NCBI RefSeq assembly: GCF_000264905.1
Contig: NW_006763145.1
Coordinates: 1,347,347-1,411,346 of the forward strand
Length of the DNA stretch: 64,000 nucleotides
Origin: Stereum hirsutum FP-91666 SS1
Lineage: Eukaryota > Basidiomycota > Agaricomycetes > Russulales > Stereaceae
Reading direction: 5' to 3'
Shown: one piece after another, positions 183 to 32,230 of the stretch
Layout: each line of letters opens with the position of its first letter
How positions within the stretch are numbered: position 1 is the first letter of the stretch
Notes under the pieces: generated by a model
Databases searched by the model: none
Told to the model about the DNA's origin: nothing
The model's input: the letters and a program-made list of their open reading frames with translations, nothing else
Made by a program: the position numbers and the translations under genes

Positions 183-1764
183 TCACTGTCTGTTCCAAGA
201 CAGGAGGCTCATGTCTCCGAGACGTCTGAAGATGCAAGACATACGTGGTCAATGGTGTGCACCATGAGGATGAAAAAAACTATAACTAACCTTGGTTTCA
301 GGAGATGGCGGATGGTACCAAGGATAGCGAGCAAGACGAAGAGGGATGCAGCGGCGACGTATGCCCAACCCAAGAACGGGTTCTTCCCGCCAATCCACGA
401 AACCGTAGAGATGACAATGGATTTCGTACCCGAATACGGCTTAACAGGGAAGTCTATAACGGCCGTAAAAGTAGCGCCACACGCAAGTGCGCCATCAGTA
501 CACTGCCATGTCCGAGAGCACCGGGGAAGGAAGGAGCCACGTACTCATATAGGCCACGATCTGGTACGTCCCCGACTGGAGGGTGTCAGCATCGTTCCGC
601 GCCCAGAGCTTCGTGAACGTTGGTAGACCGGCCGTGCGCATCCAATTTTGGAAGTGTTCGTCGGATTTCAAGTCAGGAATGTTGGAATCGTTGTAGCCGT
701 CGGGGAACCTGAGAGCCCAGTTCGGTGGGGGTGCGAGGTTGGAAATATCTCCCGAGGGCTTTGTGACGTATTTCTTTGACTCTCCTGGCCATGCGATACC
801 GTTCTCGGAGAGGGTGTAGTTGGTAGTCGTGGTGGAGCTATCGGCGGGGTTGACGTTGGTGAGGTTGCTGAAAGTGTCTAGAGGCGTAGATTGCTTAGTT
901 TGCAAATTGCAAAGAAGATAAAAGTAGAAGGCGTACCATTGAATACTGAGTTAGCGATCAATCCGCAAGGATAGATGGCCTTCGTGGACGTCCCATCGTT
1001 GATCTCAGCCACGGGCTTACAATTCCCACTCTGCAAATCCGACGCGCTCCTCTCATCGCCCTTCAACTGGTCTGCATCATAACTCTGTACGTATCGCCTG
1101 TGGTTCTGGTAGAAGTTCGTGAGCTTGTAGTACAGGAGCACGGTCGGCTTGATGTCGTATGGGACGTCGAACTGGATGATGCACTGCTGTTGCTTGCTGA
1201 CGTCCGTCTGGGTCGTGTCATTGAAGAAGGCATATCTTGGTGCGGAGCTAGGCTGCTGATCGGATTCCGAGGCACTGAGGCGATAGTTGTATTTAGGGAC
1301 GGTGACGGCGTGGTTCGTGATGGCGTCCTGGAGATCTGTGGGACTTCCGCCAACGGTATCACACTGTGTGTAGTCGATAGTAATTTCTGTAACCTGAAAG
1401 CGTTGTACAACGTCAAGGATAAAGTCTGAGGTAGCAAGAGAATGCCAAGCGCACCAGACCACTGCCCCAGATGAGAAGGCCTCCTATAGGCGCGAAGAGG
1501 ATACCAATGATGAAGAACGTCGGAAGGACAGTTCGTGGTGTGAGAATAGGCTGCCAGGCCTTCAGTCTCTGCTGCTTAAATGCAGTATCTATACGAGAAA
1601 GTCCGACCGTTCAGTAGGCGGACGAGCGGGAAGTTACGGGCCACAGAGACTAGAATGGTAAGGGACGCACTTGCTGGTCTCCTCCAGCTACCCTTCTCCT
1701 TCTTAGGTTCAGAATCTGAACTTTGCTCAGACTTATTACTCTTCTTCCTGCCAAAAAGCGCCAT
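183..1764 (-). CDS. CDC50: CDC50/LEM3 family P4-ATPase (lipid flippase) beta subunit
   Basis: This is the non-catalytic subunit of type IV P-type ATPases, needed for exit of the flippase from the ER and for phospholipid translocation. The ATG is at 1764 and exon 1 (1671-1764) encodes a charged Lys/Ser-rich cytosolic tail. After an intron the hallmark [15 protein letters not shown] leads into a first membrane segment with [11 protein letters not shown]. The ectodomain carries [27 protein letters not shown] and [11 protein letters not shown], with several N-glycosylation sequons. A second membrane segment follows [21 protein letters not shown] last short exon, after an intron in KPR-RLGD, ends in [11 protein letters not shown], a typical family C-terminus. 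All family landmarks are present in order, so the gene looks intact. It is transcribed in the same direction as the acyltransferase behind it, 209 bases away. Confidence 0.93.
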
Positions 1765-14632: not shown

Positions 14633-16675
14633 ATGGGCTCACTCATATCAAGTACTTCATGTTGTGTCCCTCTGCCTTCCCTGAGATATTGACAACTTAT
14701 TCGAATGCACTATATCCAGGGGTTACAGCGGCGGAACAACCCCCTGCGGAGACCATGTCAATTGAGACCGTGCGTTCAGCGTTATATGGAGTGCTTGCTC
14801 AAGTAGAGGATGTGTGCGAAACTTTGTCTTTATTTTAGGTGCTGCTTCTGTGTATTGACATCCGTTTTGTGCAGTGTTGGTCTTCGGGATCCAGAGTACT
14901 GGCAAAATGTAGCGCTGGCTAGTCTGGCTCGCTGCGACCGTGCAAACATCGCCGTACAACAAGACCCCAGAGCTCTCCTACACGCCCGTAGGAGCATTCG
15001 TACGGAAATATCTGCACTTCAAGATGTGGTGCGCACCTTTGAGATGAAGCTGAACGCCCTCGCGACACCTACATCCGTTCTTCCTCCGGAGTTGCTCGGA
15101 TTATGCTTTTCCTTCCTCGCAGAGATGGAGCCACCCGGACTGCGTTGTACACCGCATCACACTCTCTGCCCTCTTGGACATCCGGCGCGTCTCGGATGGA
15201 TTCGCGTTACACATGTCTGCCGCCACTGGCGGTACGTGGCGCTGAATCAATCATCTTTATGGCAAAAACCAGTCTTCGACCTCGGGTTAGAATGCGCTTC
15301 CCTTATGCTCGAACGAGCAAAACGTACTCCTTTGCGCATTGATCATTTCTTTGCGGGTCGGGAAGATCTGGACGACTCCTACGAAGAAAGGATATATGAT
15401 GCGGACATCATTGAGGACGCAATTTCCCAACATATTACCCACATCAAGACGTTCAGCCTACGCAACGTGACGCACAGCGAACATGCGGTGATATCATCCC
15501 TAATACAAGCTGCCCCCATCTTAAAGTCCATACAAATCAGTACGGGCTCTGGAGACGATCACTCTAGTTTCTCCTTCCCAGACAATCTCCTCAACTACGA
15601 TGCGCCTTGTCTACAGCAGATCAACCTGACAGGAGTCGGGGGCAACTGGGGCTGCACACTCTCCCGCTTCCAGAGTCTCGTCAGCCTCGACATCATCCAA
15701 AGTCTTCGTGGGCTTACTCAATACGAAGGTCTACTCGACTGCCTCGAAGCAAACCCTGGGCTACGCACCGTCTCATTGCGAAACGTATTCCGAACCCCTG
15801 TCGGCCTACTAGGTTCATCCGTATCATCGACCCGGTCACGCATTCAGTTGCACAATCTCCAGAGCCTTACGATCCATCACTTCCACGAGAGCTTTTCGCA
15901 GTTTTTCCGTGTGCTCGACATGGCGGATACCACTGAAATAGACTTCATCGACGTATCTCCCTCTTCACCAACCAGCAATTGCCTCCCATTGTTTTCCGCC
16001 CTGTGCTCTCACTTTACACGCCGCCTCCCTTTTCGTCAGCTGGAACTCGACGTGGACAACAATGGCATTACCTTTTGTTCCGGAGGCGCACGACGAGAAC
16101 TGGGAGAGATTGATGAACAGATTGTTTATTACGTCGCCCTTCCAGCATATCTATCCATCAATATAATTTGCGATACGACCGACCTACGTGTCCTCAAAGC
16201 TGCTCTTCACACACTTCCGTTCACCGATACACTCGAAACCCTTGTCGTCACCCACGAAGGGCCAACATCCGGGCTCTGGGCGTCAGATTTCTACTCACGC
16301 TACCACCACATACAATACTTTCGTTTCGAGGACGAAGAGGGACTCGTGGAGCTTGCACGAACCTCAGTCGTTGACGGAACAGAAGTTGGTGTGGAATTCT
16401 TTCCTCGCTTGACGCACCTAGAAGTGCGTTTGATGGACTTGACGAAGCCCTCTCCCAACCTTGAAAGGGGTACAATGACGCGTTTCGCCCTCTTGGTAAA
16501 GATGGTACATAGACGGAAGGAGTTAGGGTCACCCATTAAAACACTTCGTCTCAAGGGATGTAGGGTGCCGGATTCTGGAATTCAGGAGCTTGATGAAGTC
16601 GTCGAGTGGGCATACCCCGAGTCGGACGAAGATGAGCCTGACTGGGAGGAATTGGATGATCAGGGACTTACGTAG
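14633..16675 (+). CDS. F-box protein of the expanded basidiomycete family
   Basis: This is a probable substrate-recognition subunit of an SCF ubiquitin ligase. The model starts at ATG 14633 (MGSLIS) and removes an intron of about 68 bases to VTAAEQPPAETMSIETV. It removes a second intron after AQVEDV to reach VGLRDPEYWQNVALASL. A coiled segment (RRSIRTEISALQDVVRTFEM) precedes the F-box: LPPELLGLCFSFLAEM, VTHVCRHWRYVALNQSSLW. The remaining 430 residues are leucine-rich and end in an acidic tail (SDEDEPDWEELDDQGLT). Basidiomycete genomes carry many such genes, usually with this exact SALxxV..CRxW layout. The target is unknown. Confidence 0.85.
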
Positions 16676-16742
16676 GCAAACCCGCACTTCTTTTCTTTAT
16701 CCTTCAAATATTTTAGTGGCTTAAGCGACGTGTGCGATGCTA

Positions 16743-16768
16743 TACAGTGTAGGCCCACTCCTTGATCC
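16743..16768 (+). repeat. left terminal inverted repeat of the MITE
   Basis: This 26-base arm is identical to the reverse complement of the right arm, including the flanking TA. Confidence 0.88.
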
Positions 16769-17113
16769 GCCACTTTGAATCAATTTGTTTTCTCGCTCCC
16801 CTTCCCATATTCGTTCAAATGGCTAACCCTGAGGTTGATATCATCCATAAAGGATTTCAGAATAAAATACACACGGTGCCCAAGGTGAGTGTGCATTCTT
16901 GGGAGACCAAAAGGTGGTGTGGCACCCGAGCGCCACAAAATATGGGTCCTTGATCCAACGCCGCACTGCACGGTTCCCCCTCATAACAATAATGCATGCT
17001 CATTCATGTATTCAATATAGCCTTAAGTGTCCTGTATCTACAAGTTTAAAGAGTGTTCTTCAAGCTGGGGGAGCTGTAGGCGGCAGTTATGCAGTGGATC
17101 AAGGACCGGGGTT

Positions 17114-17139
17114 GGATCAAGGAGTGGGCCTACACTGTA
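17114..17139 (-). repeat. right terminal inverted repeat of the MITE
   Basis: This 26-base arm is identical to the reverse complement of the left arm. A 13-base internal match (TCCTTGATCCAAC) also occurs at 16947-16959. Confidence 0.88.
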
Positions 17140-17411
17140 GCGACTAGCGCTCTGTTTGTTAGATGTACCTTATGATGCCGACATGAAAGGTGTTTTTTTT
17201 GGATGGCGCGCGAGCCATCGCAATGTAACTTGCACGCAGAGTCATGTGCTAAGTTGCTGCCATGAGGACGCGTATACTACTTGCCCCCTTGGTGGTAAGA
17301 AGACAGTGTGTCACAAAGTAATATTCAAAAGACCCATATAGGGCAGGATTATGTGTAGTATAATAATGAAAACATCAAAATCGTCAAGTCATCACAATCA
17401 GCACCTCCCAC

Positions 17412-19000
17412 CTAATCGAGCTCGTTCAGAGCCCTCGCAGCAAGCCGGAACAAGGCCTCCTCGAGGTCTCTAGCACTAAAAAAGCTCATCAGTCAGCGAC
17501 ACTCGTACCTGGCCCGTGGCTGGCAAAACGACGTACTCGATTGATTCGTCGCGCTTCGTGGTGGGGTTGGAGCTCGTAGTGTCGCTAGAACCGCTGCTTC
17601 CACCGAAAAGCCCACCGATGATATGTTCGCCATCCTGGATAATATCACCACCATCCGTCAGTCCCTTGAGGAGAGTGCTGATTGCAGAGCGTTCTTCCAA
17701 GTCCCGGGACCTAAAGGACGAAATAAAAGACGAGATGAGTACTTGGAGAATAACAAAGGCAACGAAGCCCGAACGACGTACGCCAGATAAGCCAGGGCAT
17801 CAACCATATCACGTTTAGTGGCCGCGGCGCTGGTAGGAGCAGCGGAAGCAGAAGCCGTCACTGTCCCCGGAGTTGGAGGGTCGAAGAAGTTCTTGATCCT
17901 GTTAGCGATGCTGATACCTGTGTCTACGCCTCCAGCAACAGTGGCCGCAGTACCGAGGTGCTTGCTGGCGGAACGTGCTTCATAATCGTTCAAGTCTTGT
18001 TCGCGACGTTGGCTATCCGGATAAGCAATAAATAAAAGTAATACTGTGAAAAGGAAGGGATATTGCTTACGCGGTCGTCGCAGAGCTGGTTGCAGCTGAA
18101 GCAGCAGGAGCCGTCACTGTCGCAGGGGCCGGAGGGTCAAATAAGCTCTTGACGCCGTTGATAATGCCGATGCCTGAGTCCAAGGCTGCAGCACCATTGC
18201 CTACATTCCCCAGCAGGCCACTGAAAGAGCTCCCTCCACTACTGGAACCGGTCTTGGGAGTACTTGTCTTGGGCTTAGTAACAGCACGAGCGTTGTGATA
18301 GTTGAGTGGTCGTTCTCGACGTTGACTGTTTAAATGAGCAATCATGAGATGATATCTGAAACAGAGAAATACTACATACGCAGTTGTAGCAGAGCTGGTA
18401 GCGGCTGGAGCAGCAGATACGGTCTCTGTCGCAGAGTCTGATCCGCCGAAGAGGTTCTCGAATCCGTTGATGATGCCAGCGCCGGAGCCGAAGATTCCAG
18501 CGATATTACCAGCATTCTTAAACGCTTGACTCGCAGAGCTACCTCCACCACTGGAACTGGTCTTCGGTTTGGTCGCAGCACGGGCGTCGTTGTGGTTGAG
18601 TCCTTGTTCACGGCGTTGACTATTCGTATGAGCAATCAATGGGGGCCGATGCTGTCAAAGATAGAGAATTAACCCACGCGGTCGCAGTGTCCGTAGTAGA
18701 GTTCGAGGACGCGTCGGTAGCGGTGGTAGCAGAGGCGGCTGCAGAGGAGGCAGTTACGGTAACGGGAGCAGGGGAAGAGCCTGAGCCACATAGGATTCCG
18801 AGGTCGCAAGCTATGTTGCCAATTTGGCCAATATGACCGATGACTGATCCAACCTTATTTAAAGCGCTGCTACCGGAGCTGCTGGACTCGGAGCCACCAG
18901 TGCTTGGCTTCGTCGCAGGCTTAGATTTTGAGCCATTGATCGGGGCGGCAGAGGTGCTGGAGGCAACGAGAAGGAGGAGAAGTGCAGCAGAGCCGTGCAT
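17412..19000 (-). CDS. secreted modular repeat protein with basic-residue cleavage motifs
   Basis: No named family was recognised. Six exons (19000-18678, 18619-18380, 18325-18071, 18012-17782, 17710-17537, 17475-17412) total 1287 bases, giving a 428-residue protein in one frame. The N-terminus is a signal peptide (MHGSAALLLLLVASSTSAAP). Exons 2, 3 and 4 are diverged copies of one cassette: QRRE..LN..AR.., a Ser/Gly-rich linker, a GxGIINGxxxLF segment, and a Thr/Ala/Val tail ending SATTA. Exon 5 opens SRDLEER and contains a related DGEHIIGGLFGG segment. Exon 6 is ARDLEEALFRLAARALNELD. All five introns are phase 2, and all internal exons are multiples of three. The RR and KR sites (QRR-E, TKR-D twice) suit Kex2 processing, so it may be a repeat precursor. 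It resembles the gene at 28396 in design. Confidence 0.8.
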
Positions 19001-19238
19001 GATGTCTATGGAGGATTGGCGAAGGACGTGGAGGAAGGTGTTGAAGATAGACTAGAGTATTGAAGTTGAAGAGCGAAAGGAGAGTGTATCGTGAATGAAC
19101 AAATATTAATGGCTAGAGAACGCAATGGATGAGCATGATCGTCGAAAAGATGAGTCTGGTAGAAGGGAGGGCTCACTATCCAGTACCAGAAGAAAATCGA
19201 ATGAGCAGGTGCTGGGGATTCAAGGGCGTGTTGCACGA

Positions 19239-19250
19239 CCTTTTATATCG
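19239..19250 (-). promoter_or_regulatory. TATA box candidate of the secreted repeat gene
   Basis: On the minus strand the sequence reads GATATAAAAGG, about 240 bases before the ATG at 19000. The second secreted-protein gene has a TATAAAAT at nearly the same distance (28141). A leader of about 200 bases would follow. Confidence 0.45.
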
Positions 19251-20884
19251 GACGAACCAACCGCTAATTCGCTAGTAGACTGAAAAAAGGTCGTGCCATT
19301 CGTTTCGTCTTTTCTCGGTTCTGTATCCTTGATCCTGCACCACTCGTGCCGAGATGCGGGTATCTGCCGCCACACCCGAGCGTGATGGTGATACAAGCGA
19401 AACAACGGACTGGACATGTATTTCGGGTGGACTGGACATGTGTGTTGTGCCTTGTAACGAGAGCTAATGCCGTCGCGTACTTCACCAGTTATGATTTATT
19501 AGAGACCCTAGATATCCGTAAGAATGAACTGATTGATGATGATGCAAAAGGAAAGAAGAAGACCCGCGCACTAGTCAATATAGCCGTCTAACTTTTGGCC
19601 TCTCGGGATTCATGGCGACATACCCGTTTGTCCGTTCTCCTAGTTTTTGTGCATCTGTCATTCGAGGCGAAGCGATATCAAACGTTGGACCCGGAGAGCA
19701 ACCATCCATGAAAACCCTCCTCCTGGAATTGGGATGTCAGCGTCAGCCGATATAAGCCGATCCAAATAGAGAAAAATGACGATACCAGGAGCCTACGAAG
19801 GCATTCTCTTGTCCCGTGATGTGAGGCTGAATCCCGAAACTGCATCACTCGACCGTTGGAAGATTTTCAATAAAGTTTAGAAGCAACGAAGTGATTGGTG
19901 ACGAACAGGCATCCGAAACAGGGAGACCAATCACCAGTTACGCGGTCGACAATCTTTCGTTCGGGCTACATGAAAGACAACGTGAAATGCGCGTACCTGA
20001 CCGCGAAGAGTATGAAGTGACATAAAGAATGGGTTCAAGATAGACTGTCGCAGGCATCGTCCGTACAATTCGATACAGTTCGGTGAGCCTTGGATGATGG
20101 TTCTATTTCGGACCTCAACAAGTCGAGGATCAGGCCGAATCAAGGTAGAACATCGCATTGATTTCTAGCAGAGGCATGCGGCATCTTGGAATATTTAGAC
20201 CTTGACAGCAACAGCGGAGGGTGGCGTACTGGTACAGGAAGGATGAGGGCGATCCTAAGTTATTGATACCCATGACTGCGTAATCTGTCGCAGTGGCTTG
20301 AAACGATCCGCGTTTTGTGTTTATGATGCGAGCGGATGAGGATTGCTTACGAGCCCGTTTTTGAGGCTTCAAAAAATGGCCCCATAGCAAGTCGTCGAGG
20401 CAGAGCAGTGCTCCTTTCGATATCTGAAGTCGATGGTAAATTCTCGAGAAGAGCGAAAATAGAACACGAATTAGGTGCTAGTTCACCGGAGAGAAAGATA
20501 CGACAGGAAACAGCGAGTCAGTTGAGTGCGAGTGCAAAGGAATACAAAGAAGGAAACTTTACCGATCAACCACCACCAATTGTGACGACAAACACCGAAT
20601 GGTATCCAGACCTTGGTCCTCACTTTCGACGTTACACGTTTACAACGGCCATTCTTCAACAGTGCCCGATCGGGCCATTCCACGAAACCCACACGAGAAG
20701 ATGCAAGGAACAGTAATCTTCATGATACGATAGTCCAAATCCTCGTGAACGACATTAGCCGGGGCCGCTAAGCTACATGATGCACGACAGGCCACGGGTA
20801 AAAAGCGTGAAAATACTTCTCTCATCCTTCCTCCTGGATCCGTCCTCCGCGAGTTTAAAACCCATCCAGAGCATCGCTCAGGTT
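19251..20884. other. long stretch without a confident gene
   Basis: Upstream of the secreted repeat gene and behind VMA1 I see only short frames without recognisable similarity on either strand. The longest is 126 codons at 20336-20716 (+). A short direct repeat, GGACTGGACATGT, occurs twice at about 19408 and 19430. Regulatory DNA or a decayed gene are both possible. Confidence 0.5.
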
Positions 20885-23275
20885 CTACTCAGCGAGTTGT
20901 CTGAACTTGTCCTGGATCTCGGCATGGAGCGCATCGAGGTTCTTCTTTATAGACTCTTGGCCTTGTGATGGGGACTGCACGACACTGCATCAGCACAAGA
21001 CACCACAATGACAACATTCGGATGAAAAAAAGGTAAAAACGAGACGCACCTCAAACTTCATCTGCGACAACTTGAACATCACATCGCTCGCCGACTCCTT
21101 AATCTTCGCAAACGTTATATCCCCCTGGGACACCGCCTTCTGTGCCGCCTCATGGAACCCGACGAAGTTCCTCAACATCGCGCTCGTCTTGTAGAACGGA
21201 CAGTAACGATCATACTCGCTCATCCCGTTCTGCTGCAAAAAGTCGTCCTTCAGCATCCTCGCCACCTCCAGCGTGATCTTGTCGTTCTCGCCCAACGCGC
21301 TCTTCCCGACCAGCTGCACGATTTCGGCAAGATCGTCCTCCTTTTGCAGGATCTCCTTCGTCTTCGTGCGCAGGTCGACGAAGCCGGGTTCGGTGGCCTC
21401 GTAGTACGGTTCAAGGACTTTGGTGTACTTGGAGTAGGAGACGTTCCAGTTGACGGAGGGGAAATGTTTCCGTTGGGCGAGCTTCTTGTCGAGACCCCAG
21501 AAGACTTGCACGATACCGAGCGTGGAGGACGTGACAGGGTCGGAGAAGTCACCACCTGGAGGCGACACGCTATATATTGCTTTTCAATTAGTGATATGTG
21601 TGAATGAGACCAAGGTCAACTGTACGCACGCGCCGACGATGGAGACGGTACCCTGACGAACGGGATTACCCAGAGCGGTGACCTTACCCGCACGCTCGTA
21701 GAAACTGGCGAGCTTCGTACCCAAGTAGGCGGGGTAACCGGAATCAGCAGGCATCTCAGCCAGGCGACCGGAAATTTCACGAAGAGCCTCAGCCCAACGG
21801 GAGGTCGAGTCGGCCATCATGGAGACGTTGGAGCCTTGGTCACGGAAGTATTCGGCGAGGGTGATACCGGTGTAGATGGAGGCTTCACGAGCGGCGACGG
21901 GCATGTTGGAGGTGTTGGCGACGAGGGTGGTGCGTTTCATGATTGGCTCTTGACGGTCGCCGACTTCCATGGTGAGTTCGGGGAACTATCAAAGTGTTGT
22001 TGGTGAGTGTGGCCCAGGGGGTAGGAGGACAAAGGACGTTACCTCCATCAAGACTTCAGCCATCTCGTTTCCTCGCTCACCACATCCGACGTAGATAATG
22101 ATGTCGCTGTTTGAGAACTTCGAAAGAGCTTGCGAGATGACGGTCTTTCCACAACCGAAAGCGCCAGGAATAGCAGTCGTTCCACCTTGGACACATCTGG
22201 CGAGCGTGTAAGACTCGTATAAGTGGTAGAAGTGTACGATGAGCTCACGGGAAGAGAGCATCGAGAATACGTTGGCCGGTGGTCAGGGGGTGATCTGCTG
22301 TGTGCTTTTCGGCCACAGGACGAGGTGCACGGACAGGCCAAAGCTGCATCATGGTGTGTTTCGTCGTCTTGCCTTCAAACTCGGTTTCCAAAACGATATC
22401 CTACAAGTACCATGATCCATAAGTAGGATTCCATACACTTCGTGTGGGGAAAAGGTGCCTACATCGACGTGGTAGCTGCCCTTCTCTGCGATATGTGTAA
22501 TGGTGCCCATGGCGCGTGGTGACATCATGATCTTGTGAGCATCGACAAGGGAGTTCTCATATACGCGACCGAAGATATCTCCACCAGAGAGGTGGTCTCC
22601 GATCTTTAAATATGTAAGTAACAGTAAGTGGGGGGATGGAGGAGAAGTAGCGCACCTTCACGTCGGTAGGGGTGAAATCCCACTCGAGGGAGCGGTCAAG
22701 AGCTTCGGTGTTGATACCGCGGGGAATGTAGATAGACTTGGAAAGTTCTTGGATACCCTGTCAAGTCCACAGATAAGTGTAAGAATAACCACTTGTCTAC
22801 AATATACGCTCCACATACACGAAGCGGTCTTTGAATACCATCGACAATGTTGCCCATCAAACCTGGTCGGAGGTTCAGCCTCAATAATTATGGTACAGAG
22901 TTACCTTTACTCACCAGGACCGAGCTCAACACTGAGAGGCTTTCCTGTCCTCAAGACAGGGTCGCCTACAGTAACGCCCGAAGTCTCCTCGTATACCTGG
23001 ATAGTCGCCTTGTCCGCATCGATTCGAATGACCTCTGTCCACAGGGGTAACGCGTAAGCCAACCGATTTTACGCAGTGAGAGCTCTATTTGTGCACTCAC
23101 CACCCACAAGCTCGTCGTGTCCCACCCGGACAAGCTCGTACATGGCCGAACCGGTCATGTTCTCTGCAATCACGACAGGACCCGATACACCAAAGACCTG
23201 ACCGAACCTGCTCTCGCGGTCCTCATCAGCAATCTTTGGCAAGTTCCTCTTCGCATTTGGTAGAGCACCGGCCAT
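20885..23275 (-). CDS. VMA1: V-type proton ATPase catalytic subunit A
   Basis: This is the ATP-hydrolysing subunit of the peripheral V1 sector of the vacuolar/endosomal proton pump. The ATG is at 23275 ([20 protein letters not shown]). Landmarks in order: [20 protein letters not shown]; the non-homologous region around [18 protein letters not shown]; Walker [32 protein letters not shown]; Walker B area [40 protein letters not shown]; and [20 protein letters not shown]. The C-terminal helical domain ends in [11 protein letters not shown]. No intein is inserted at the Walker A site, unlike the yeast homologue. About seven introns interrupt the gene. It is divergent from RPT1 with 235 bases between the starts. 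Confidence 0.97.
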
Positions 23276-23510
23276 CGTCCGTCGTCTGTTTTTGTGGTAT
23301 TTAGAGGAAAAGCGGTGTGGATAGGTCGAGGTAATGAAGGACGAGGCAGGGATCCGAATGCGGACAGTACGTCAGCCAGGCCACCGGAGTGGGAATCTTG
23401 ACATGGTTGGTGAGACGCGCAATTGAAGGTGACGCGTCCTTGTCGCGACTCGCATCCTTCTCGCTCTCCTCCACACACCTTACTCACACACAGCTTACCA
23501 CTGAGAAATA
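23276..23510. promoter_or_regulatory. shared divergent promoter, VMA1 / RPT1
   Basis: 235 bases separate two housekeeping start codons on opposite strands. No TATA box was noticed. The call is inferred from orientation. Confidence 0.4.
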
Positions 23511-25466
<1,956 letters not shown>

Positions 25467-25882
25467 ACCATCGATTTGTAGTATTTGCATGTTGTTCATT
25501 TATTTTGATACCGCTTCACGGACTCTTCGTGTGACTGTGAGCACCTGCGACACGCATATGAATGCTATGGCTCCTGTGAATCCTCCATGGTCGAGGCTTG
25601 GTGAGCCACTTGGGGGGCTAGTGTCCGGCGGGTTGTAGTGGCGACATGTTACAAGACTGTGCGGAGGACATTAGTTGCCACGCTGTTCCAACAGGAATAT
25701 CTGTAAGCTCGGTGGCGCTCAAGTGATTCTGAGGTATTTGGAGAAGTCTATGGTTTCTTGTCTCGTCTTGAATTTCTCGCGTTGGACCTTGGAAGTGACT
25801 CGGAGGATGAAACCACGTTGTGGCGTGGCGTGTGGCGCCGGAGCAAGGAAGGGGATGAACCGTCCTGCGACAAGTCGTCGAC
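25467..25882. other. intergenic, RPT1 3' end and kinase promoter
   Basis: This is the same-strand gap between RPT1 and the mitochondrial kinase. Short open frames are present but none extends the kinase presequence convincingly. Confidence 0.5.
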
Positions 25883-27582
25883 ATGCTCTCCGCCCACCGT
25901 CGACAATGCCCCATCTCTCTTCCTCGTAAGCTATCACAATCAACGCAGAGACATGTTAGAGCTCGCCATGGATTCATCCATAAACGCACCCCCGAACCCG
26001 CATCACCTGAGCTCGCCTCTCTCCTTGCGATCTATGCCCAACAACCACCCCGCCCTCTGACCCTCGGCACCCTTCTCTCCTTGGGCGATCCGCTCACTGA
26101 AGACTCTGTGCTCAAATCTGCGTCGTATGCACAGAGTGAGATTCCGAGAAGGTTGGCGACACGAATTAGGTCGTTGGAGGGGCTGCCGTTCATTGTGGGT
26201 ACGAATCCGTATGTGGCGAGGATTATGGAGGGTTTCAGGAAGAGTTTTGAGGGCGTCGCTAGGTTCGGTGACCAAGGTGAGGACAAGGATGCGGAAGAGA
26301 AGGGTGAGATTGAGATTGAGGACGTTCGAAAGGCGAGGATGTTGGAGGAGAATGAGAGGTTCGCGGGTATGTTAGAGGGGCTTGTGAGGAATCACGCCAA
26401 TGATATTCCGACAATTGCCAAAGGGTACGTTTATTCTCTTTACCTGATTCATGATGTACGCGGTGTTCTGATATATGTTACACGACTATGAAGCTTTCAG
26501 GAAAGTCAGAGGTACATGTCACCGGAGCGTATTTCCAGTTTCCTCGACGCTGCTATACGGAACCGTGTCGCCGTTCGACTTATAGCAGAGCAGCACATTG
26601 CCCTAACGCATGCGCTCAAGGCTCAATCACAAGGAGACAGCGAGTTCGCGGAGCATTATAGGAACCATATTGGGATTGTGAATATGAAGTGCTCGCCCGT
26701 CGAGATGATACGTATGGTGGGCTCGTTTGTGAGCGAGTTAAGCGAGGCAACGCTTGGTGCCAGTCCCTCTCTTGTCATTGACGGGCATACTGATGCCACC
26801 TTTGCGTGAGTGATTTTCTTCTGAGCGTCCTCTGTTGGTCGTGTTGTGTGGCACTAGCTCATGCAATATTGTACTACTGTGGCCCACAGCTACGTCCCCG
26901 TCCATCTCGAATACATCCTCACCGAGATCCTCAAAAACGCCTTCCGTGCCACCGTCGAACACCACATCAAGTCTAAGAGCCAATCTTCCCTCCCTCCAGT
27001 CCACATAACGATCTCTCCTCCACCACCACATCTCCCACCCTCTGTCCCCTCCTTCCTCTCCCTCCGTGTCCGGGACCAAGGCGGTGGCGTCCACCCATCC
27101 CATCTCCCACGCATATTCAGCTACTCATTCACGACGGCAAGCTCGGAAGGTGCGGCTCACGATGAGGATTTGGAAGGCGGGCCGTATGCAGCACAACATG
27201 TCGGTGGGAGCGCGGCTGTGGGTGGCCCAGGGAGTGGAGGACCGGGAGAGGTCAATTTGTTTGGAGAGATGACGAAGCAGGGGGTGCAGACGGGGTTGGG
27301 AACCATTGCGGGGCTTGGGTTTGGGTTGCCGATGAGTCGGTTGTACGCTAGGTTTGTGGATCTCTGCTCCTTCCCTTGCGCCTAGCCTAACTTGATCGGT
27401 CTACGACGGTAGGTATTTCGGAGGATCATTGGACTTGTATTCTATGCATGGATGGGGTGAGTGCCATTCTCCGCTTTCAGTTTTAACCGAGCATCTTTAC
27501 TGACATCCTGTAATGATCTTCAGGTAGCGATGTGATCCTTAAACTTCGGTGTCTGGACACAGCACCATCTATGGAAATATAA
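25883..27582 (+). CDS. mitochondrial PDK/BCKDK-type protein kinase
   Basis: This is a GHKL-fold kinase that phosphorylates and inactivates a mitochondrial 2-oxo-acid dehydrogenase E1 (pyruvate or branched-chain). The ATG is at 25883. The first 36 residues are Arg/His/Ser-rich without acids, a plausible matrix presequence. The N-domain has QSEIPRRLATRIRSLEGLPF and, after an intron in AKG-FQESQRYM, FLDAAIRNRVAVRLIAEQHI. The kinase part has the N-box EILKNAFRATVEHH, the G1 box RDQGGGVHPSHLPRIFSYS and the G2 region GLGFGLPMSRLYARYFGG. The ATP lid carries an unusually long Gly-rich insertion of about 50 residues between SYSFTT and GLGFGLP. The protein ends ILKLRCLDTAPSMEI. PDK and BCKDK cannot be separated by eye. 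Confidence 0.9.
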
Positions 27583-28140
27583 ATTTATATCATGCGTAAT
27601 CCTCGCAGGAGTTTCGTCGAGCAAAAACCGCAGGTGCATAGTGCTGTTACTAGCTCCACGTGGATAGCCTTGGTAGTTCGCCATACAGTTTACAGCCAGC
27701 GCCAATGCGCGTACCTTGGGCTCTCCATCGCATGCTATCGCCGGTCAACAATATTCTGGGTCTGATCAGACCTCGAATCCCGAGCAGGAAGTCCCCCAGG
27801 ATTGACGCTTCAGACTCATGGTAAACAGTTTGGACCTGGTTGCCTCCATCGCCTCCGCCTCAGGCCCTTGTTTCATGAACATGTCGTCTATTCTCACCAG
27901 GCGGGGACTACATACCATCTCAACTACGAGCACGATCTTACGGTTGCCCGTTGACTATGTGGCGTGGGCTATCTGGCGAACAGACCCCAATGTTTGCCGT
28001 TCTCGTTTCATGACCTCCTCTATGGCCTGGACTTACACTACGTCACATTGTGCACTCGACCATCATTGCAATGACACAGGTACTGGGTTGAAGCATAGTG
28101 TAATTCATCTCGGGCCGACGAGCGTCTTTGCGTTCCACTG
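27583..28140. other. intergenic, upstream of the second secreted gene
   Basis: A 189-codon open frame runs from 27818 to 28387. It lacks similarity, has poor composition and runs through the TATA box and leader of the next gene, so it was not called. No other feature is seen. Confidence 0.5.
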
Positions 28141-28148
28141 TATAAAAT
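28141..28148 (+). promoter_or_regulatory. TATA box candidate of the second secreted gene
   Basis: TATAAAAT lies 255 bases before the ATG at 28396. The leader between them contains the direct repeat ATTCACGACTT twice. Confidence 0.45.
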
Positions 28149-28395
28149 GTTGCGAAGGTTGGGTCTCCTATCCCCAGCACTTGCTCACTTTCGACCTTCA
28201 CCTGGTACTGGATAGTGAGTGCCCTCTTTCACCACAGATCTCTACGCCGTGCTCATATCTATCGACATTAGCCATCCGTATTTTGTTCATTCACGACTTG
28301 ACGTCTTCGCACATTCACGACTTTGACTTCCACCAACACTATTGCCAGCCTATTTTTCACACCCTCGCCACCTCCATCTTTTCCTGAAAGTCACC

Positions 28396-29562
28396 ATGAT
28401 CCACGCATCCTCCATTTTGCTCGCTCTCCTGGTCGTTTCGTCTGCTTCTGCTGCTCCTCTACTGTAAGTTCTCCCTTCAGACCATTAAAGTCGAGTTTGG
28501 TTGTCTGAAAAAAATGTATCGTCCTATGTTCTTACAGGGCACGGGCGGAAGAGATCCTTGACAGTGCCTTTCAGTCATCTTTGGCTGCAGAAATTATGAA
28601 CAGCTTCCCTACGAGCACCAGTGTCGATCCAAGCTCTGCGGCACCTTCGGAGCCAACATCTATCTCTGCGTTCTTCCCCCTGAGATCACCCATACCACAT
28701 CATTCTCTCCTTCCTGAGCCAATCGTTGGTCGTGATTATGAACTTGACACTTTGACCGAGCTTAGGTATGTTTACAGCGTAATATCACTTCTCCCTGTTG
28801 CGCAGAAATACTGATTCCTGACATTGACAAGCAGTGCTAGGGTAGATGCTGAAGGCGCTGCCAGACGTGAATTGTTGGAGGCCCGTCGCCACCCGTATGT
28901 TTCACGGCCCTGTCGCTGTGAGATCATTTTTTTTTGACTTTATATTTCTCTGCAGCGCGCGGGACCTCGAGGCGAGGACTCCGAAAATCCCCATCTTCGA
29001 AGGACCTGGACCGGTGCTGTCTCCTACTTCGCTTTTACCCTTGTCGCTGGTCGAGCCAAGTGCGACCGTGACGGCCACTGCGTCCACAACCGATGATGAT
29101 ACAAGTAGCGCATTACCTACTTCTGTGCCTTTAGAGGACCCGTTGATTCTCGCTCCGACACCTTCGCCTTCAGTGCAGGCGGGATCTAGTCCGCTATCTC
29201 AGGCTCTGGCTTCTGCCAGAGTATTAGAGGGACGTGATGTGCTGGAGGTCCTACGTCACTAGTATGTCGTGGTCTTCTAACCCTCAAAGAATATCATATT
29301 CTAAACACACTTGTTCGTTTACAGCATCAGAGATCCCAAGAATCTATTGGGGACACCTTTTTCACCACAGGGTATCCCTCACTTGGGACCATTTCCCGCG
29401 ACGATCGATGCATTTCCCACCAGCAGTATCGCTTCTCCCACTGCGACTTCGTCAGAGAAAACGGGGTTTGGAATCCGTCCACAGGCGACTACTAACAGCA
29501 TCCCACCGAATCTTCCCGTAGATGATCTTCCCATAAATAAGATTCCCGTACTAGATGATTGA
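28396..29562 (+). CDS. secreted protein with phase-2 cassette exons, unknown function
   Basis: No known family was recognised. Five exons (28396-28463, 28538-28765, 28835-28894, 28956-29261, 29325-29562) total 900 bases and give 299 residues. The N-terminus is a signal peptide (MIHASSILLALLVVSSASAAP), close in style to that of the gene at 19000. All four introns are phase 2. Exons 2-4 are multiples of three, and one is only 60 bases. After each junction comes a short Arg motif: ARAEEILDS, ARVDAEGAARRELLEARRHP, ARDLEART, IRDPKNLLG. The rest is Pro/Ser/Thr-rich and probably disordered. Three exons therefore open with A-R followed by acidic residues, as in the repeat gene. It could be a processed precursor or a cell-wall/secreted disordered protein. 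Confidence 0.72.
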
Positions 29563-30445
29563 AAGAGGACAAACACGGATTTTGAGGTATGTGCTTTTCC
29601 ATTGACTGGCATGGTCCTTGCCTGACGCTGGTCCCCTTGCCTCTTAGATTACAGGGAAGTCAGGGAGCTCTCGGTGCGCTCTGATTTGGTCTGAGTTTCT
29701 CAGGGTTTTGGGATGGAGACAATAGGGGTACTTGGGCGAGGCTCAAGGACATGCCTAGAATAGGTGGATTCTTTGGCGCTAGTGTGTGCAGTAGCGTTGG
29801 CAATTGAAAATTCATCCTTTCATTCCGAAAATCCGGTGAATCGACCGGCCAATGCGTCGGCTAGACCTGTTGCTTGTTCCATAAATATTTTTCTGAAAGT
29901 CTCAGAAAAGTGAACATTGGGCATCCATATGCAGACACCGCTGTGACACAGGTCGGCATCTGCCGACGTTCTTGACTTACCAGTTCGAACTGTTTTGGAA
30001 CTACTTACTCTGTCCTTTGTCCCTCTTGGAAGATAAGACTCGTAGACCATCTAAGCGGCTGGCTCCAACCCACAATTTATAAGGCCAGACACTTTCGCTC
30101 CATACCCGTTTTCATTCGCCCTGGAGTACTACTGCGCCGCATAGCACTGCCGTCCTCAGGCCACCAAGTCAATGCTATGGGAGGTGATGAGTCTTTCTTT
30201 CTCCGTTTGAATGGCGTAGTGGACCCCCCGGCATATTTTCTGACCGAATCTCAAACGAAGCCACGCATAATTGCGCACTTCGTGATCTCTCATGGTGCGG
30301 AGACGCCCCTCACATATGCGTACCAAACCGAGCAGTTATAAAATATGACGCGAAAGCTTCGCAAATAACAGCGGATGCTGGGTATATTCTGTAGGGTGAC
30401 GATGAAACCAAGAAAGCAGAAGACCTGAACAGAGACTGAGGACTT
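29563..30445. other. convergent 3' region, no gene seen
   Basis: This stretch lies between the second secreted gene (+) and the ING-family gene (-). A possible intron in the 3' untranslated region starts near 29586. There are no recognisable frames. Confidence 0.5.
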
Positions 30446-32230
30446 TCATCGTTTACGTTTCCGTGGGGCGCCAAGGCCCATTGCCTCTCTACAGTCTTTG
30501 CAGTACCACTTTGTCGATTTTGGGACCTCGGTGAGACCAACGCAGGCGAGATGAAACTACAAGAAAATCGACGGCGGGTAAGCTCTTTGCAAATAAAAGA
30601 AAGGAAAGAGGCCTACCCATTCGTATGGACATTCGTCGTTGTCGCAGCCGACCATCTGTAGGCACGCAATCCCGAACGTTTGAACATGAGCTTGTGGGCA
30701 TAAATAAAAGTTCACACTTACGTCTCCATACGAAACCTGATTGCAATAACAATACGTCGGCTCGTTAGGGTCGACTGGGACAATGGCAGCGTTGTTCGCT
30801 TGCACGACGGCGGCTAGTGGTGGAACCTTCAACTTCAAGCGCGGAGCTGTGGTCCCAGCTGTGGGCAATGGCGTGACAGCTTTTTCTGGTTGTTCTACGC
30901 CTTTTTTCCTTCCCCTCCTTCTTTTGGAGACTGGGCGACTTCCTGGGGCAGGAATAGCGTCTTCTGTGACGCCGATTATGGTTCCGCCACCTTCGAGTTC
31001 GACTTGGGCAAGGGCAGCTCCAGAGAAAGGAAGAGGATTGTCGCTTTCGTCGCCCGGGAGGGGAGAGTACATAGTCTGGGCATTACGTTGCCAGCGAGGA
31101 ACAGAGATTTCGGGGAGCAGGGCAGGATGGGTTCCAGGTCTAATACCGATTGAGAGAGAGGTTTCCTGTTCGAGGATTGCTTGGTCTAGGAGTCGGATAT
31201 GTCGATCTGCCTATGGAACAGAGCTAAGATCAGTTAATCAACTTAGGAGGCGTACAGACGAGAGACCCACGGAATCATATGCTGCCTGCGCTAGGTTGAC
31301 CTTCTCCTGCGAGGAGTGCATGGCTTCCTCAAGCAGGACACCCACGCTCGAGAGAATACTACGTGCAGAAGGTGGAGTTTTAGGACGTGGTGGTGCAGGA
31401 TTTGGCGAATCCGAGATTGCCTTCAGCGAAGAAGCAGTTCGACCGAGTCGTGAGCGTTTGGTTGGTGATCGACTCCGAGAGCTGACGCGGCGAAGTTGGC
31501 GAGGTGGTGTCTTCGGTGTAGATGGCTCCTCTCTACTGTCCTCGTTAGCGTCAGCTTTGGTTTCGGTTTGGCCAGCTTCACTGGTTGTACCTGCACCCGT
31601 GGCGGTAGACGGTTCAGATGCAGGTTCTGGCAAGGGCTGCGGCGTCTCTATCATAATGGTTCTGAGTTTGATATATTCCTCCAGTCGAGGGATTATATCC
31701 GCAAGATATCCTGTCATTGTTAAGGAGCGATACATGATGTCTGTAGACATAAGGGTTACGAAGGATGAAAAGCGTACTAGCGCCTTGGCCGTCCAGCTCG
31801 CGCATGAGCGTGAATGTTCTATGCAAGGACAGAGGTAGTTGTTCGAGGACTTGCACGTTACAAATATAAGCTTTCTTGCACATAAATATAGTAGTCAAGA
31901 ACTCGCACCTGGGTGAAATTCATCTCGCATACCCTCCCATATTTCCTGTTCCTTCGTCAGCTTCTCTTCCTCTTCCACATTCGGCTCTTGCGGTTGACCA
32001 ACGTCCAGGGCGTTATCGGCCTTGGAGTGCTGCTCAAGATCTCCGGTGTATACGTCGCCTTCTTGTTCTGTTTTGTCAAGGTTCATTGGGCCCGCCTCTA
32101 CAGCTTCCTCGATATCTGCCGGTGCCTCTTCTTGCTCGATGTCGGGTTCAGGCTCGGTCACCGGATCCATCTCGTCTTGGTCTGGAAATGAGCGAATAGC
32201 TGCCTGAGAACGTCGACGTCTACGACCCAT
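30446..32230 (-). CDS. ING-family PHD-finger protein (NuA4/Rpd3-type chromatin subunit)
   Basis: This is a chromatin reader of the ING family, which anchors acetyltransferase or deacetylase complexes to H3K4me3. The ATG is at 32230 (MGRRRRRSQAAIRSF), followed by an acidic N-terminal extension of about 105 residues. The ING domain starts at VLEQLPLSLHRTFTLMREL, continues YLADIIPRLEEYIKLRTIM, is interrupted by about 100 Ser/Thr/Pro-rich residues, and resumes EKVNLAQAAYDSV then DRHIRLLDQAI. A long linker has KRRRGRKK. The C-terminal PHD is YCYCNQVSYGDMVGCDNDEC, PYEWFHLACVGL, KWYCKDCRE, split by introns, and the protein ends RKRKR. It is larger than most ING proteins because of the N-terminal and mid-domain insertions. 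Confidence 0.88.

What the first reader, a model, noticed from the sequence alone, without database searches (positions are those of the whole stretch)
17412..19000. Secreted repeat protein built from symmetric phase-2 exon cassettes with basic cleavage motifs at each junction
Six exons join into a 428-residue frame (1287 bases). All internal exons are multiples of three (240, 255, 231, 174), and every intron is phase 2. Exons 2-4 repeat the same plan: QRRE..LN..AR, Ser/Gly linker, G-I-NG..LF segment, SATTA tail. Sites such as QRR-E and TKR-D are Kex2-like, and a signal peptide is present. This fits a secreted precursor cut into similar peptides (compare Kex2-processed repeat proteins and dikaritin-type precursors). 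Here the repeat boundary is the exon boundary, so units can be gained or lost by exon duplication or skipping. I know of no named family with this cassette.
Basis: partly seen in the sequence, partly recalled or inferred. Interest (0 to 1): 0.8.

Follow-up and report, generated by a model that had tools for sequence, protein, structure and literature searches.

The report
Mushroom peptide precursor with cassette exons
A wood-decay mushroom gene encodes a secreted protein made of similar units, each on its own exchangeable exon and bounded by likely cutting sites, so it probably releases several peptides; three more genes in the same genome share its start region and intron phasing.

Summary
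The minus-strand gene at 19000-17412 has six exons, five introns all in phase 2, and a 428-residue product identical to STEHIDRAFT_161113 of Stereum hirsutum FP-91666 SS1. Exons 1-4 carry related units. Its five RR/KR sites exceed chance, lie near exon joins, and are all followed by Asp/Glu.

Its 5' leader, with an 18-base word shared exactly, was found upstream of three other genes: a paralogue (154317), a long repeat precursor on contig C3 with units up to 90% identical, and a second secreted-protein gene here (28396-29562). All 19 coding introns of the four genes are phase 2 (two models are mine). The leaders align; the coding parts hardly do.

Best reading: a KEX2-processed repeat protein (KEP) with diverged units, giving linear Gly-rich peptides. 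KEPs are a published class; six literature searches found no exon-per-repeat KEP. Dikaritin-type cyclisation is not supported: no listed UstYa match lies on either contig. Cleavage, expression, exon skipping and function are inferred.

The parts
18678..19000 (-). Exon 1 (323 bases): signal peptide, Ser-rich linker, first Gly-rich hydrophobic segment (LNKVGSVIGHIGQIGNIACDLGIL), S/T/A tail
18380..18619 (-). Exon 2 (240 bases): cassette QRREQGLNHNDAR, Ser/Gly linker, AGIFGSGAGIINGFENLF, S/A/T tail
18071..18325 (-). Exon 3 (255 bases): cassette QRRERPLNYHNAR, linker, ALDSGIGIINGVKSLFDPP, S/A/T tail
17782..18012 (-). Exon 4 (231 bases): cassette QRREQDLNDYEAR, no linker, GGVDTGISIANRIKNFFDPP, tail ending TKRDMVDALAYLA
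17537..17710 (-). Exon 5 (174 bases): SRDLEER, LLKGLTDGGDIIQDGEHIIGGLFGG, tail ending TKRDESID; diverged or separate unit
17412..17475 (-). Exon 6 (64 bases): C-terminal amphipathic helix ARDLEEALFRLAARALNELD and stop; similar last exon in 154317 and in the C3 precursor
19172..19189 (-). Leader word CTGGTACTGGATAGTGAG, shared exactly with the three other family genes
19113..19176 (-). Putative 5'-UTR intron (64 bases, GTGAGC..CTAG, CTCAT branch-like site); equivalents of 57, 57 and 61 bases in the other three genes
   Evidence: found by motif, not shown by RNA
19089..19247 (-). TATA box (at -247) and 5' leader; 72% identical over 134 aligned positions to the leader of the gene at 28396
28141..28296 (+). 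Leader of the second family gene in the window (TATA at 28141, leader word 28202-28219, putative UTR intron 28215-28271)
28396..29562 (+). Second secreted-protein gene with the same leader: my model, exons 28396-28463, 28538-28765, 28835-28894, 28956-29261, 29325-29562; 299 aa, 4 of 4 introns phase 2; RRELLEAR and ARDLEAR at one junction, but no clear repeats and no excess of dibasic sites

Best explanation
The gene encodes a KEP-type precursor. Shown from sequence: a signal-peptide-like start; related units bounded by RR/KR-[DE]; every intron in phase 2 and near a unit boundary; and membership of a four-gene set in this genome with a shared leader. Inferred: the protein enters the secretory pathway, Kex2 cuts after RR/KR and Kex1 trims the ends, giving an N-terminal piece of about 90 residues, four fragments of about 60-85 residues and a 25-residue C-terminal helix. 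The short acidic spacer after most dibasic sites, often ending in AR, may be removed by a second cut. The released linear peptides, with a Gly/Ala/Ile-rich segment and an S/T/A-rich tail probably O-glycosylated, most likely act at surfaces or membranes, in biotic encounters or on the hyphal surface. Symmetric 2-2 exons let units be duplicated, lost or swapped without breaking the frame behind a constant leader.
For: Exact match to the annotated protein. Related units with significant scores, an excess of dibasic sites and acid after 5 of 5; sites close to junctions. The C3 gene, with the same leader and C-terminal exon type, has 10 KR/RR sites (2.46 expected; 0 of 2000 shuffles reach 10), acid after 8 of 10, and fragment pairs up to 90% identical over their full length. 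A distant relative of the C3 gene in Punctularia (PUNSTDRAFT_124410, E 2e-17, 20% of the query covered) has KR-E repeats of the same kind (KR/RR 5 against 1.85, P 0.032, acid after 3 of 5). Phase 2 in 19 of 19 coding introns over four genes. NG86 dN 0.29 and dS 0.80 between exons 2 and 3, and dN below dS for exons 3/4 and 2/4 too, so the repeats are constrained coding sequence. A Kex2-type P-domain is encoded at C3:2886405. KEP-derived peptides were detected in four other agaricomycetes (PMC9769878: abstract, sections 3, 5, 10, 14 and passages read).
Against: No expression, splicing or peptide data were available. Identity between units of this gene (32-55%) is low and fails the 70% screen used for Coprinopsis. 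Exon 5 barely fits the series. Predicted fragments (60-85 aa) are longer than the agaricomycete KEP peptides whose sequences I saw (up to 20 aa). The sister gene at 28396 has the leader and exon phases but no clear repeats and only 2 dibasic sites against 0.94 expected (P 0.24). Similarity between units of this gene and three C3 units is weak: 14 of 15 pairs have z between -0.8 and 3.4, one has 5.0 (e2 with unit 2). One repeat per exon holds only in part in the C3 gene: its 762-base exon 5 carries four units. Paralogue 154317 has an acid after only 1 of 3 dibasic sites. Only one P-domain match was seen, whereas PMC9769878 section 10 speaks of three kex2 genes in Coprinopsis and other agaricomycetes; the exon-by-exon search may have missed some.
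Confidence: 0.6

Rival explanations
1. An uncut secreted or wall-associated S/T/A-rich glycoprotein whose repeats are structural; the dibasic sites are used rarely or not at all.
For: S, T and A make up 41% of residues (15.0, 9.8, 16.1%). AlphaFold gives a low-confidence, mostly unstructured model (mean pLDDT 42.8, single sequence). Unit identity is low. The sister at 28396 lacks a dibasic excess.
Against: Dibasic sites exceed chance, lie within 12 residues of each of the five junctions and are followed by acid in 5 of 5. The C3 relative is a clear KEP by repeat identity and site number. The C-terminus is a charged helix, not a GPI signal (by eye).
Confidence: 0.25
2. A dikaritin-type RiPP precursor whose cores are cyclised by UstYa/DUF3328 oxidases.
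For: Signal peptide plus repeats plus Kex2-type sites. The genome has UstYa-family genes: 30 listed matches, some of them pieces of one gene.
Against: None of the 30 listed matches is on C15 or C3 (the list may be capped, its weakest entry is at the family cut-off). Of 17 nearby ORFs scanned, 8 match Pfam above cut-off and none is a modifying enzyme of that kind: V/A-type ATPase, branched-chain dehydrogenase kinase-like, acyltransferase, F-box, fungal kinase. The units are long; the protein has 3 Tyr and no Trp (read).
Confidence: 0.04
3. The four genes share a leader only because a promoter/UTR fragment was copied, and the exon-phase likeness is a separate coincidence; the coding parts are unrelated.
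For: Only the leader DNA aligns between the genes. The coding units of this gene and of the C3 gene align weakly.
Against: Phase 2 in 19 of 19 introns; similar signal peptides; the 154317 unit aligns with this gene's exon 3 (z 12.6) and exon 2 (z 5.8); a similar last exon (..RALNELD / ..RVLDELD) in three genes; leader at the same distance from ATG (TATA-like box -247 to -259, word -189 to -200).
Confidence: 0.1

Closest known systems
KEX2-processed repeat proteins (KEPs), as defined in PMC6339444 and PMC7329392
   Same: Secreted, internal repeats bounded by KR/RR, widespread in fungi including Agaricomycetes, mostly of unknown function.
   Different: Units here are long (60-85 aa), only 32-55% identical, and lie one to an exon in one intron phase. 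The words intron and exon do not occur in the main text of either survey; their supplementary lists could not be read, so this protein may be listed there.
Ustilago maydis Rep1 (repellents)
   Same: KEP giving linear peptides; PMC9769878 section 3 says they form amyloid-like fibrils.
   Different: No sequence comparison was made; surface activity of the Stereum peptides is inferred only.
Ascomycete alpha-factor-type precursors
   Same: Acidic residues follow the dibasic site, as in a spacer removed after Kex2 cleavage.
   Different: The spacers here are not XA/XP dipeptide runs (Ste13 type); three of five end in AR within ten residues, and the cores are long.
Dikaritin precursors (ustiloxin type)
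   Same: Signal peptide, repeats, Kex2-type sites.
   Different: No UstYa match listed on the contig; cores long and poor in aromatic residues.
PUNSTDRAFT_124410 (Punctularia strigosozonata)
   Same: KR-E boundaries, (L)EAR spacers, Gly/Ala-rich units; matches the C3 gene at E 2e-17.
   Different: It did not come up for the finding's own protein; exon structure not available here.

Membership tests
KEP | N-terminal signal peptide | tested here: inconclusive
   MHGSAALLLLLVASSTSAAP looks like one and the other three genes start alike, but no predictor was run
KEP | At least four fragments on cutting at KR/RR (PMC6339444, section 24) | tested here: met
   Six fragments of 92, 80, 85, 64, 63 and 25 residues, with 19 residues taken off as signal peptide
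KEP | At least three similar fragments that cover 15% or more of the protein (PMC6339444) | tested here: met
   Fragments 80/85/64: blastp-short E 6e-10, 1e-7, 0.08; gapless identities of the 64-residue fragment 20 and 26 of 64 in the other two, 0 of 5000 shuffles each; 3 x 64 of 428 residues = 45%. This approximates the published test; FIMO itself was not run. The 63- and 92-residue fragments do not join clearly
KEP | Fragments at least 70% identical, one similar to two others (PMC9769878, section 14) | tested here: not met
   Best pair 55% in this gene. The C3 relative meets it (one fragment 86-94% identical to three others over 18-37 residues)
KEP | Three or more tandem repeats of 8 to 100 aa between Kex2 sites by the 0.6 score (PMC7329392, section 13) | tested here: inconclusive
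   Repeat lengths 80, 85 and 64 fit; the repeat score was not recomputed
KEP | Peptides actually released | not testable with these tools
   No peptidomics
Dikaritin RiPP | UstYa/DUF3328 gene near the precursor | tested here: not met
   30 matches listed in the genome, none on C15 or C3 (list possibly capped at 30, weakest entry at the cut-off)
Alpha-factor-like (Ste13) KEP | XA/XP dipeptide run after the Kex2 site | tested here: not met
   EQGLN, ERPLN, EQDLN, DMVD, DESI follow the five sites

The most novel reading that the evidence does not exclude
A fungal peptide-diversification system made of a constant leader (TATA box, non-coding exon, 5'-UTR intron, signal peptide) and interchangeable phase 2-2 cassette exons, most carrying one Kex2-released peptide, so that duplication, loss or skipping of exons changes the secreted peptide mixture without frame damage.
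Probability: 0.25. Interest if true: 0.7.

Novelty: new variant of a known kind. Interest (0 to 1): 0.5.

Why it matters
KEPs are common in mushrooms but most have no known function. A family where the unit of processing is also a symmetric exon would give a concrete genetic route for gaining and losing peptides, and would be a fungal case of exon-cassette evolution. The conserved leader gives a sequence tag for finding hypervariable members that protein searches miss: the C3 gene, a clear KEP by its repeats, brought up no annotated S. hirsutum protein and was found here through the leader.

Tried and rejected
Protein search with the finding's protein found only itself (best-sharing 7993 candidates scored, and shorter proteins such as the 222-aa paralogue fall outside its length limits). 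Pfam gave HTH_64 and DUF2076 below their cut-offs, and the PDB gave nothing. Weak own-genome hits at window 798-923 and C18:871906 showed no cassette gene on inspection. Near-matches to the leader word at C2:1084346 and C1:3637847 showed no leader around them; the backwards control pattern also gave 6 hits at up to 2 mismatches, so only the four exact matches and the BLAST matches are used. A rough splice-finder of my own read through in-frame introns and gave a wrong model even for the known gene; it was dropped, and the models of the genes at 28396 and on C3 were set by hand from splice motifs and frame. Their phase counts are therefore less independent than those of 161113 and 154317, which agree with annotated proteins. 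The Umemura type G-1/P-2, which lists both Stereum and Punctularia, was considered and judged different: tyrosine-rich, about one per strain. AlphaFold models were too uncertain for a fold search (pLDDT 62.1 and 42.8), so none was made. Intron similarity: of 171 intron pairs, A1/A3 and A1/A2 rank second and fourth and are in register, but their P values (0.003, 0.009) are unremarkable for 171 pairs. Literature searches on exon/intron structure of KEPs or fungal exon shuffling of secreted repeats gave no paper in five and one off-topic plant paper; none was found naming Stereum hirsutum with KEX2 or Stereum with this gene number. The library holds open-licence papers only.

Full report
Observation. 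The window lies in a 46.0 Mb genome. The spliced protein matches Stereum hirsutum FP-91666 SS1 at 100% over 428 residues, the public entry STEHIDRAFT_161113. S. hirsutum is an agaricomycete of the order Russulales. The public annotation agrees; whether it rests on transcripts is unknown to me.

Repeat anatomy. Exons 2, 3 and 4 begin QRRE..LN...AR, run through a linker (absent in exon 4) into a Gly/Ile-rich segment ending NGFENLF / NGVKSLFDPP / NRIKNFFDPP, and end in an S/A/T tail. Smith-Waterman scores of e2/e3, e3/e4 and e2/e4 lie 26, 22 and 15 standard deviations above shuffles; exon 1 aligns with e2 and e3 (z 10.5, 11.3); 0 of 500 shuffles reach these. Exon 1 with e4 has z 3.8 (1 of 500). 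Exon 5 aligns with e2 only (z 5.1; 0.1-1.3 with e1, e3, e4). Shuffles do not keep local low complexity, so the z values are somewhat generous. NG86 gives dN 0.29 and dS 0.80 for exons 2/3, 0.32 and 0.77 for 3/4, 0.41 and 1.46 for 2/4: constrained coding repeats of considerable age.

Cleavage sites. There are five KR/RR sites against 1.46 expected from shuffles (P 0.0085), all followed by D or E, at 1.3 to 11.7 residues (mean 4.5) from an exon junction (P 0.0004 for random placement). Cutting there gives fragments of 92, 80, 85, 64, 63 and 25 residues. After three of the five sites comes a short stretch that ends in AR (EQGLNHNDAR, ERPLNYHNAR, EQDLNDYEAR); in the C3 relative the matching stretches include EFEAR, DFDAR, DIDIR and EIDER, and in the Punctularia relative FLEAR and LEAR. 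I read this as a spacer, by analogy with alpha-factor; that reading is inference. Acid after the site elsewhere: 154317 1 of 3, gene at 28396 1 of 2, C3 gene 8 of 10, Punctularia 3 of 5.

A family found through its leader. The 330 bases upstream of the ATG match three other places in the genome, and the leader of the C3 gene finds the same set; the tool scores only the best candidates, so more distant members may exist. The four upstream regions share the exact word CTGGTACTGGATAGTGAG; the longest common word in 300 sets of shuffles was 8. In each gene a TATA-like box (CATAAA in 154317) lies at -247 to -259 and the word at -189 to -200. The word ends in GTGAG, followed 57-64 bases from there by YAG, with a CTNAY branch-like site 19-22 bases before the end in all four, so it is probably the end of a non-coding exon and the donor of a 5'-UTR intron. 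At DNA level only this leader aligns between the genes (46-134 bases, 72-94%; six of six pairs).

The other members. (a) 154317 on C3 (222 aa), one cassette related to exon 3 here (z 12.6); exons 65, 303, 45, 18, 177, 61; 5 of 5 introns phase 2. (b) A gene at C3:3348852-3346761 for which no annotated S. hirsutum protein came up: 590 aa, six exons, 5 of 5 phase 2, 10 KR/RR sites (two overlapping) against 2.46 expected, fragment pairs 81-90% identical over their full length, and a C-terminus (..LASRALNELD) like that of this gene (..LAARALNELD). Two of its exons (144 and 171 bases) carry one unit each, but exon 5 (762 bases) carries four, so one repeat per exon holds there only in part. (c) The gene at window 28396-29562, 299 aa, 4 of 4 phase 2, with RRELLEAR and ARDLEAR around a junction but no repeats and no dibasic excess (2 against 0.94, P 0.24). 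Together 19 of 19 coding introns are phase 2 and 15 of 15 internal exons are multiples of three; these are related genes, so the counts are not independent, and (b) and (c) are my own hand-set models.

Outside this genome. The last protein search, with the C3 protein, found P0003 (368 aa, 73% identical over 48% of the query), a database protein that appears to read through two introns at the places of C3 introns 3 and 4, with the flanking coding sequence conserved and the stretch between different; and PUNSTDRAFT_124410 of Punctularia (Corticiales), E 2e-17, 43% identical over 20%. The finding's own protein had no match beyond itself, and the preliminary 154317 model none beyond the annotated 154317. 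These searches need shared five-residue words, and only the best-sharing ~8000 candidates were scored, so absence is weak evidence.

Processing machinery and neighbourhood. One Kex2-type P-domain match lies at C3:2886405. UstYa/DUF3328 has 30 listed matches, none on C15 or C3. Of 17 window ORFs scanned (of the 113 of at least 120 aa listed), 8 match Pfam above cut-off: V/A-type ATPase (two ORFs), branched-chain dehydrogenase kinase-like (two), acyltransferase, F-box, fungal protein kinase (two); 9 have no match above cut-off. This does not look like a biosynthetic cluster, but most ORFs were not scanned. Rfam found nothing in 15000-32000.

Known kind and novelty. By architecture this is a KEP (definitions read in PMC6339444 section 24, PMC7329392 section 13, PMC9769878 sections 5 and 14). 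It meets the fragment-number test and, by an approximation, the similar-fragment test of the first; it fails the 70% identity screen of the third; the second was not recomputed. KEP peptides have been detected in other agaricomycetes, and knockouts of six kep genes gave no phenotype in axenic culture, which led those authors to propose roles in biotic interactions (PMC9769878, abstract and section 10). What I did not find described is a KEP with one repeat per symmetric phase-2 exon behind a constant leader. I therefore call it a new variant of a known kind.

Mechanism. Most likely: secretion, Kex2/Kex1 cutting, and release of linear Gly-rich peptides with S/T/A-rich tails. AlphaFold, without an alignment, gives helices at residues 35-38 and 44-61 of the exon-3 cassette (mean pLDDT 62.1, about 80 over residues 51-60) and a low-confidence whole-protein model (42.8). 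I put about 0.6 on processing into peptides and about 0.3 on a membrane- or surface-active role.

Noticed in passing
window 16743-17139: A perfect 26-base inverted repeat with 345 bases between its arms, just downstream of the gene: looks like a small non-autonomous DNA transposon. Copies elsewhere in the genome were not searched.
   Followed up: partly
window 28396-29562 (+): A second secreted-protein gene with the same leader and all-phase-2 exons; the two leaders face each other across about 9 kb that holds at least a V/A-type ATPase gene and a kinase gene.
   Followed up: yes
G000:C3:3346761-3348852 (locus L027, minus strand): A clear long KEP gene; no annotated S. hirsutum protein came up for it.
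   Followed up: yes
four gene leaders (window 19113-19247 and 28141-28296; C3 loci): The putative 5'-UTR intron donor and the adjoining non-coding exon are more alike between the genes than the coding exons, which suggests a regulatory role for the leader.
   Followed up: partly
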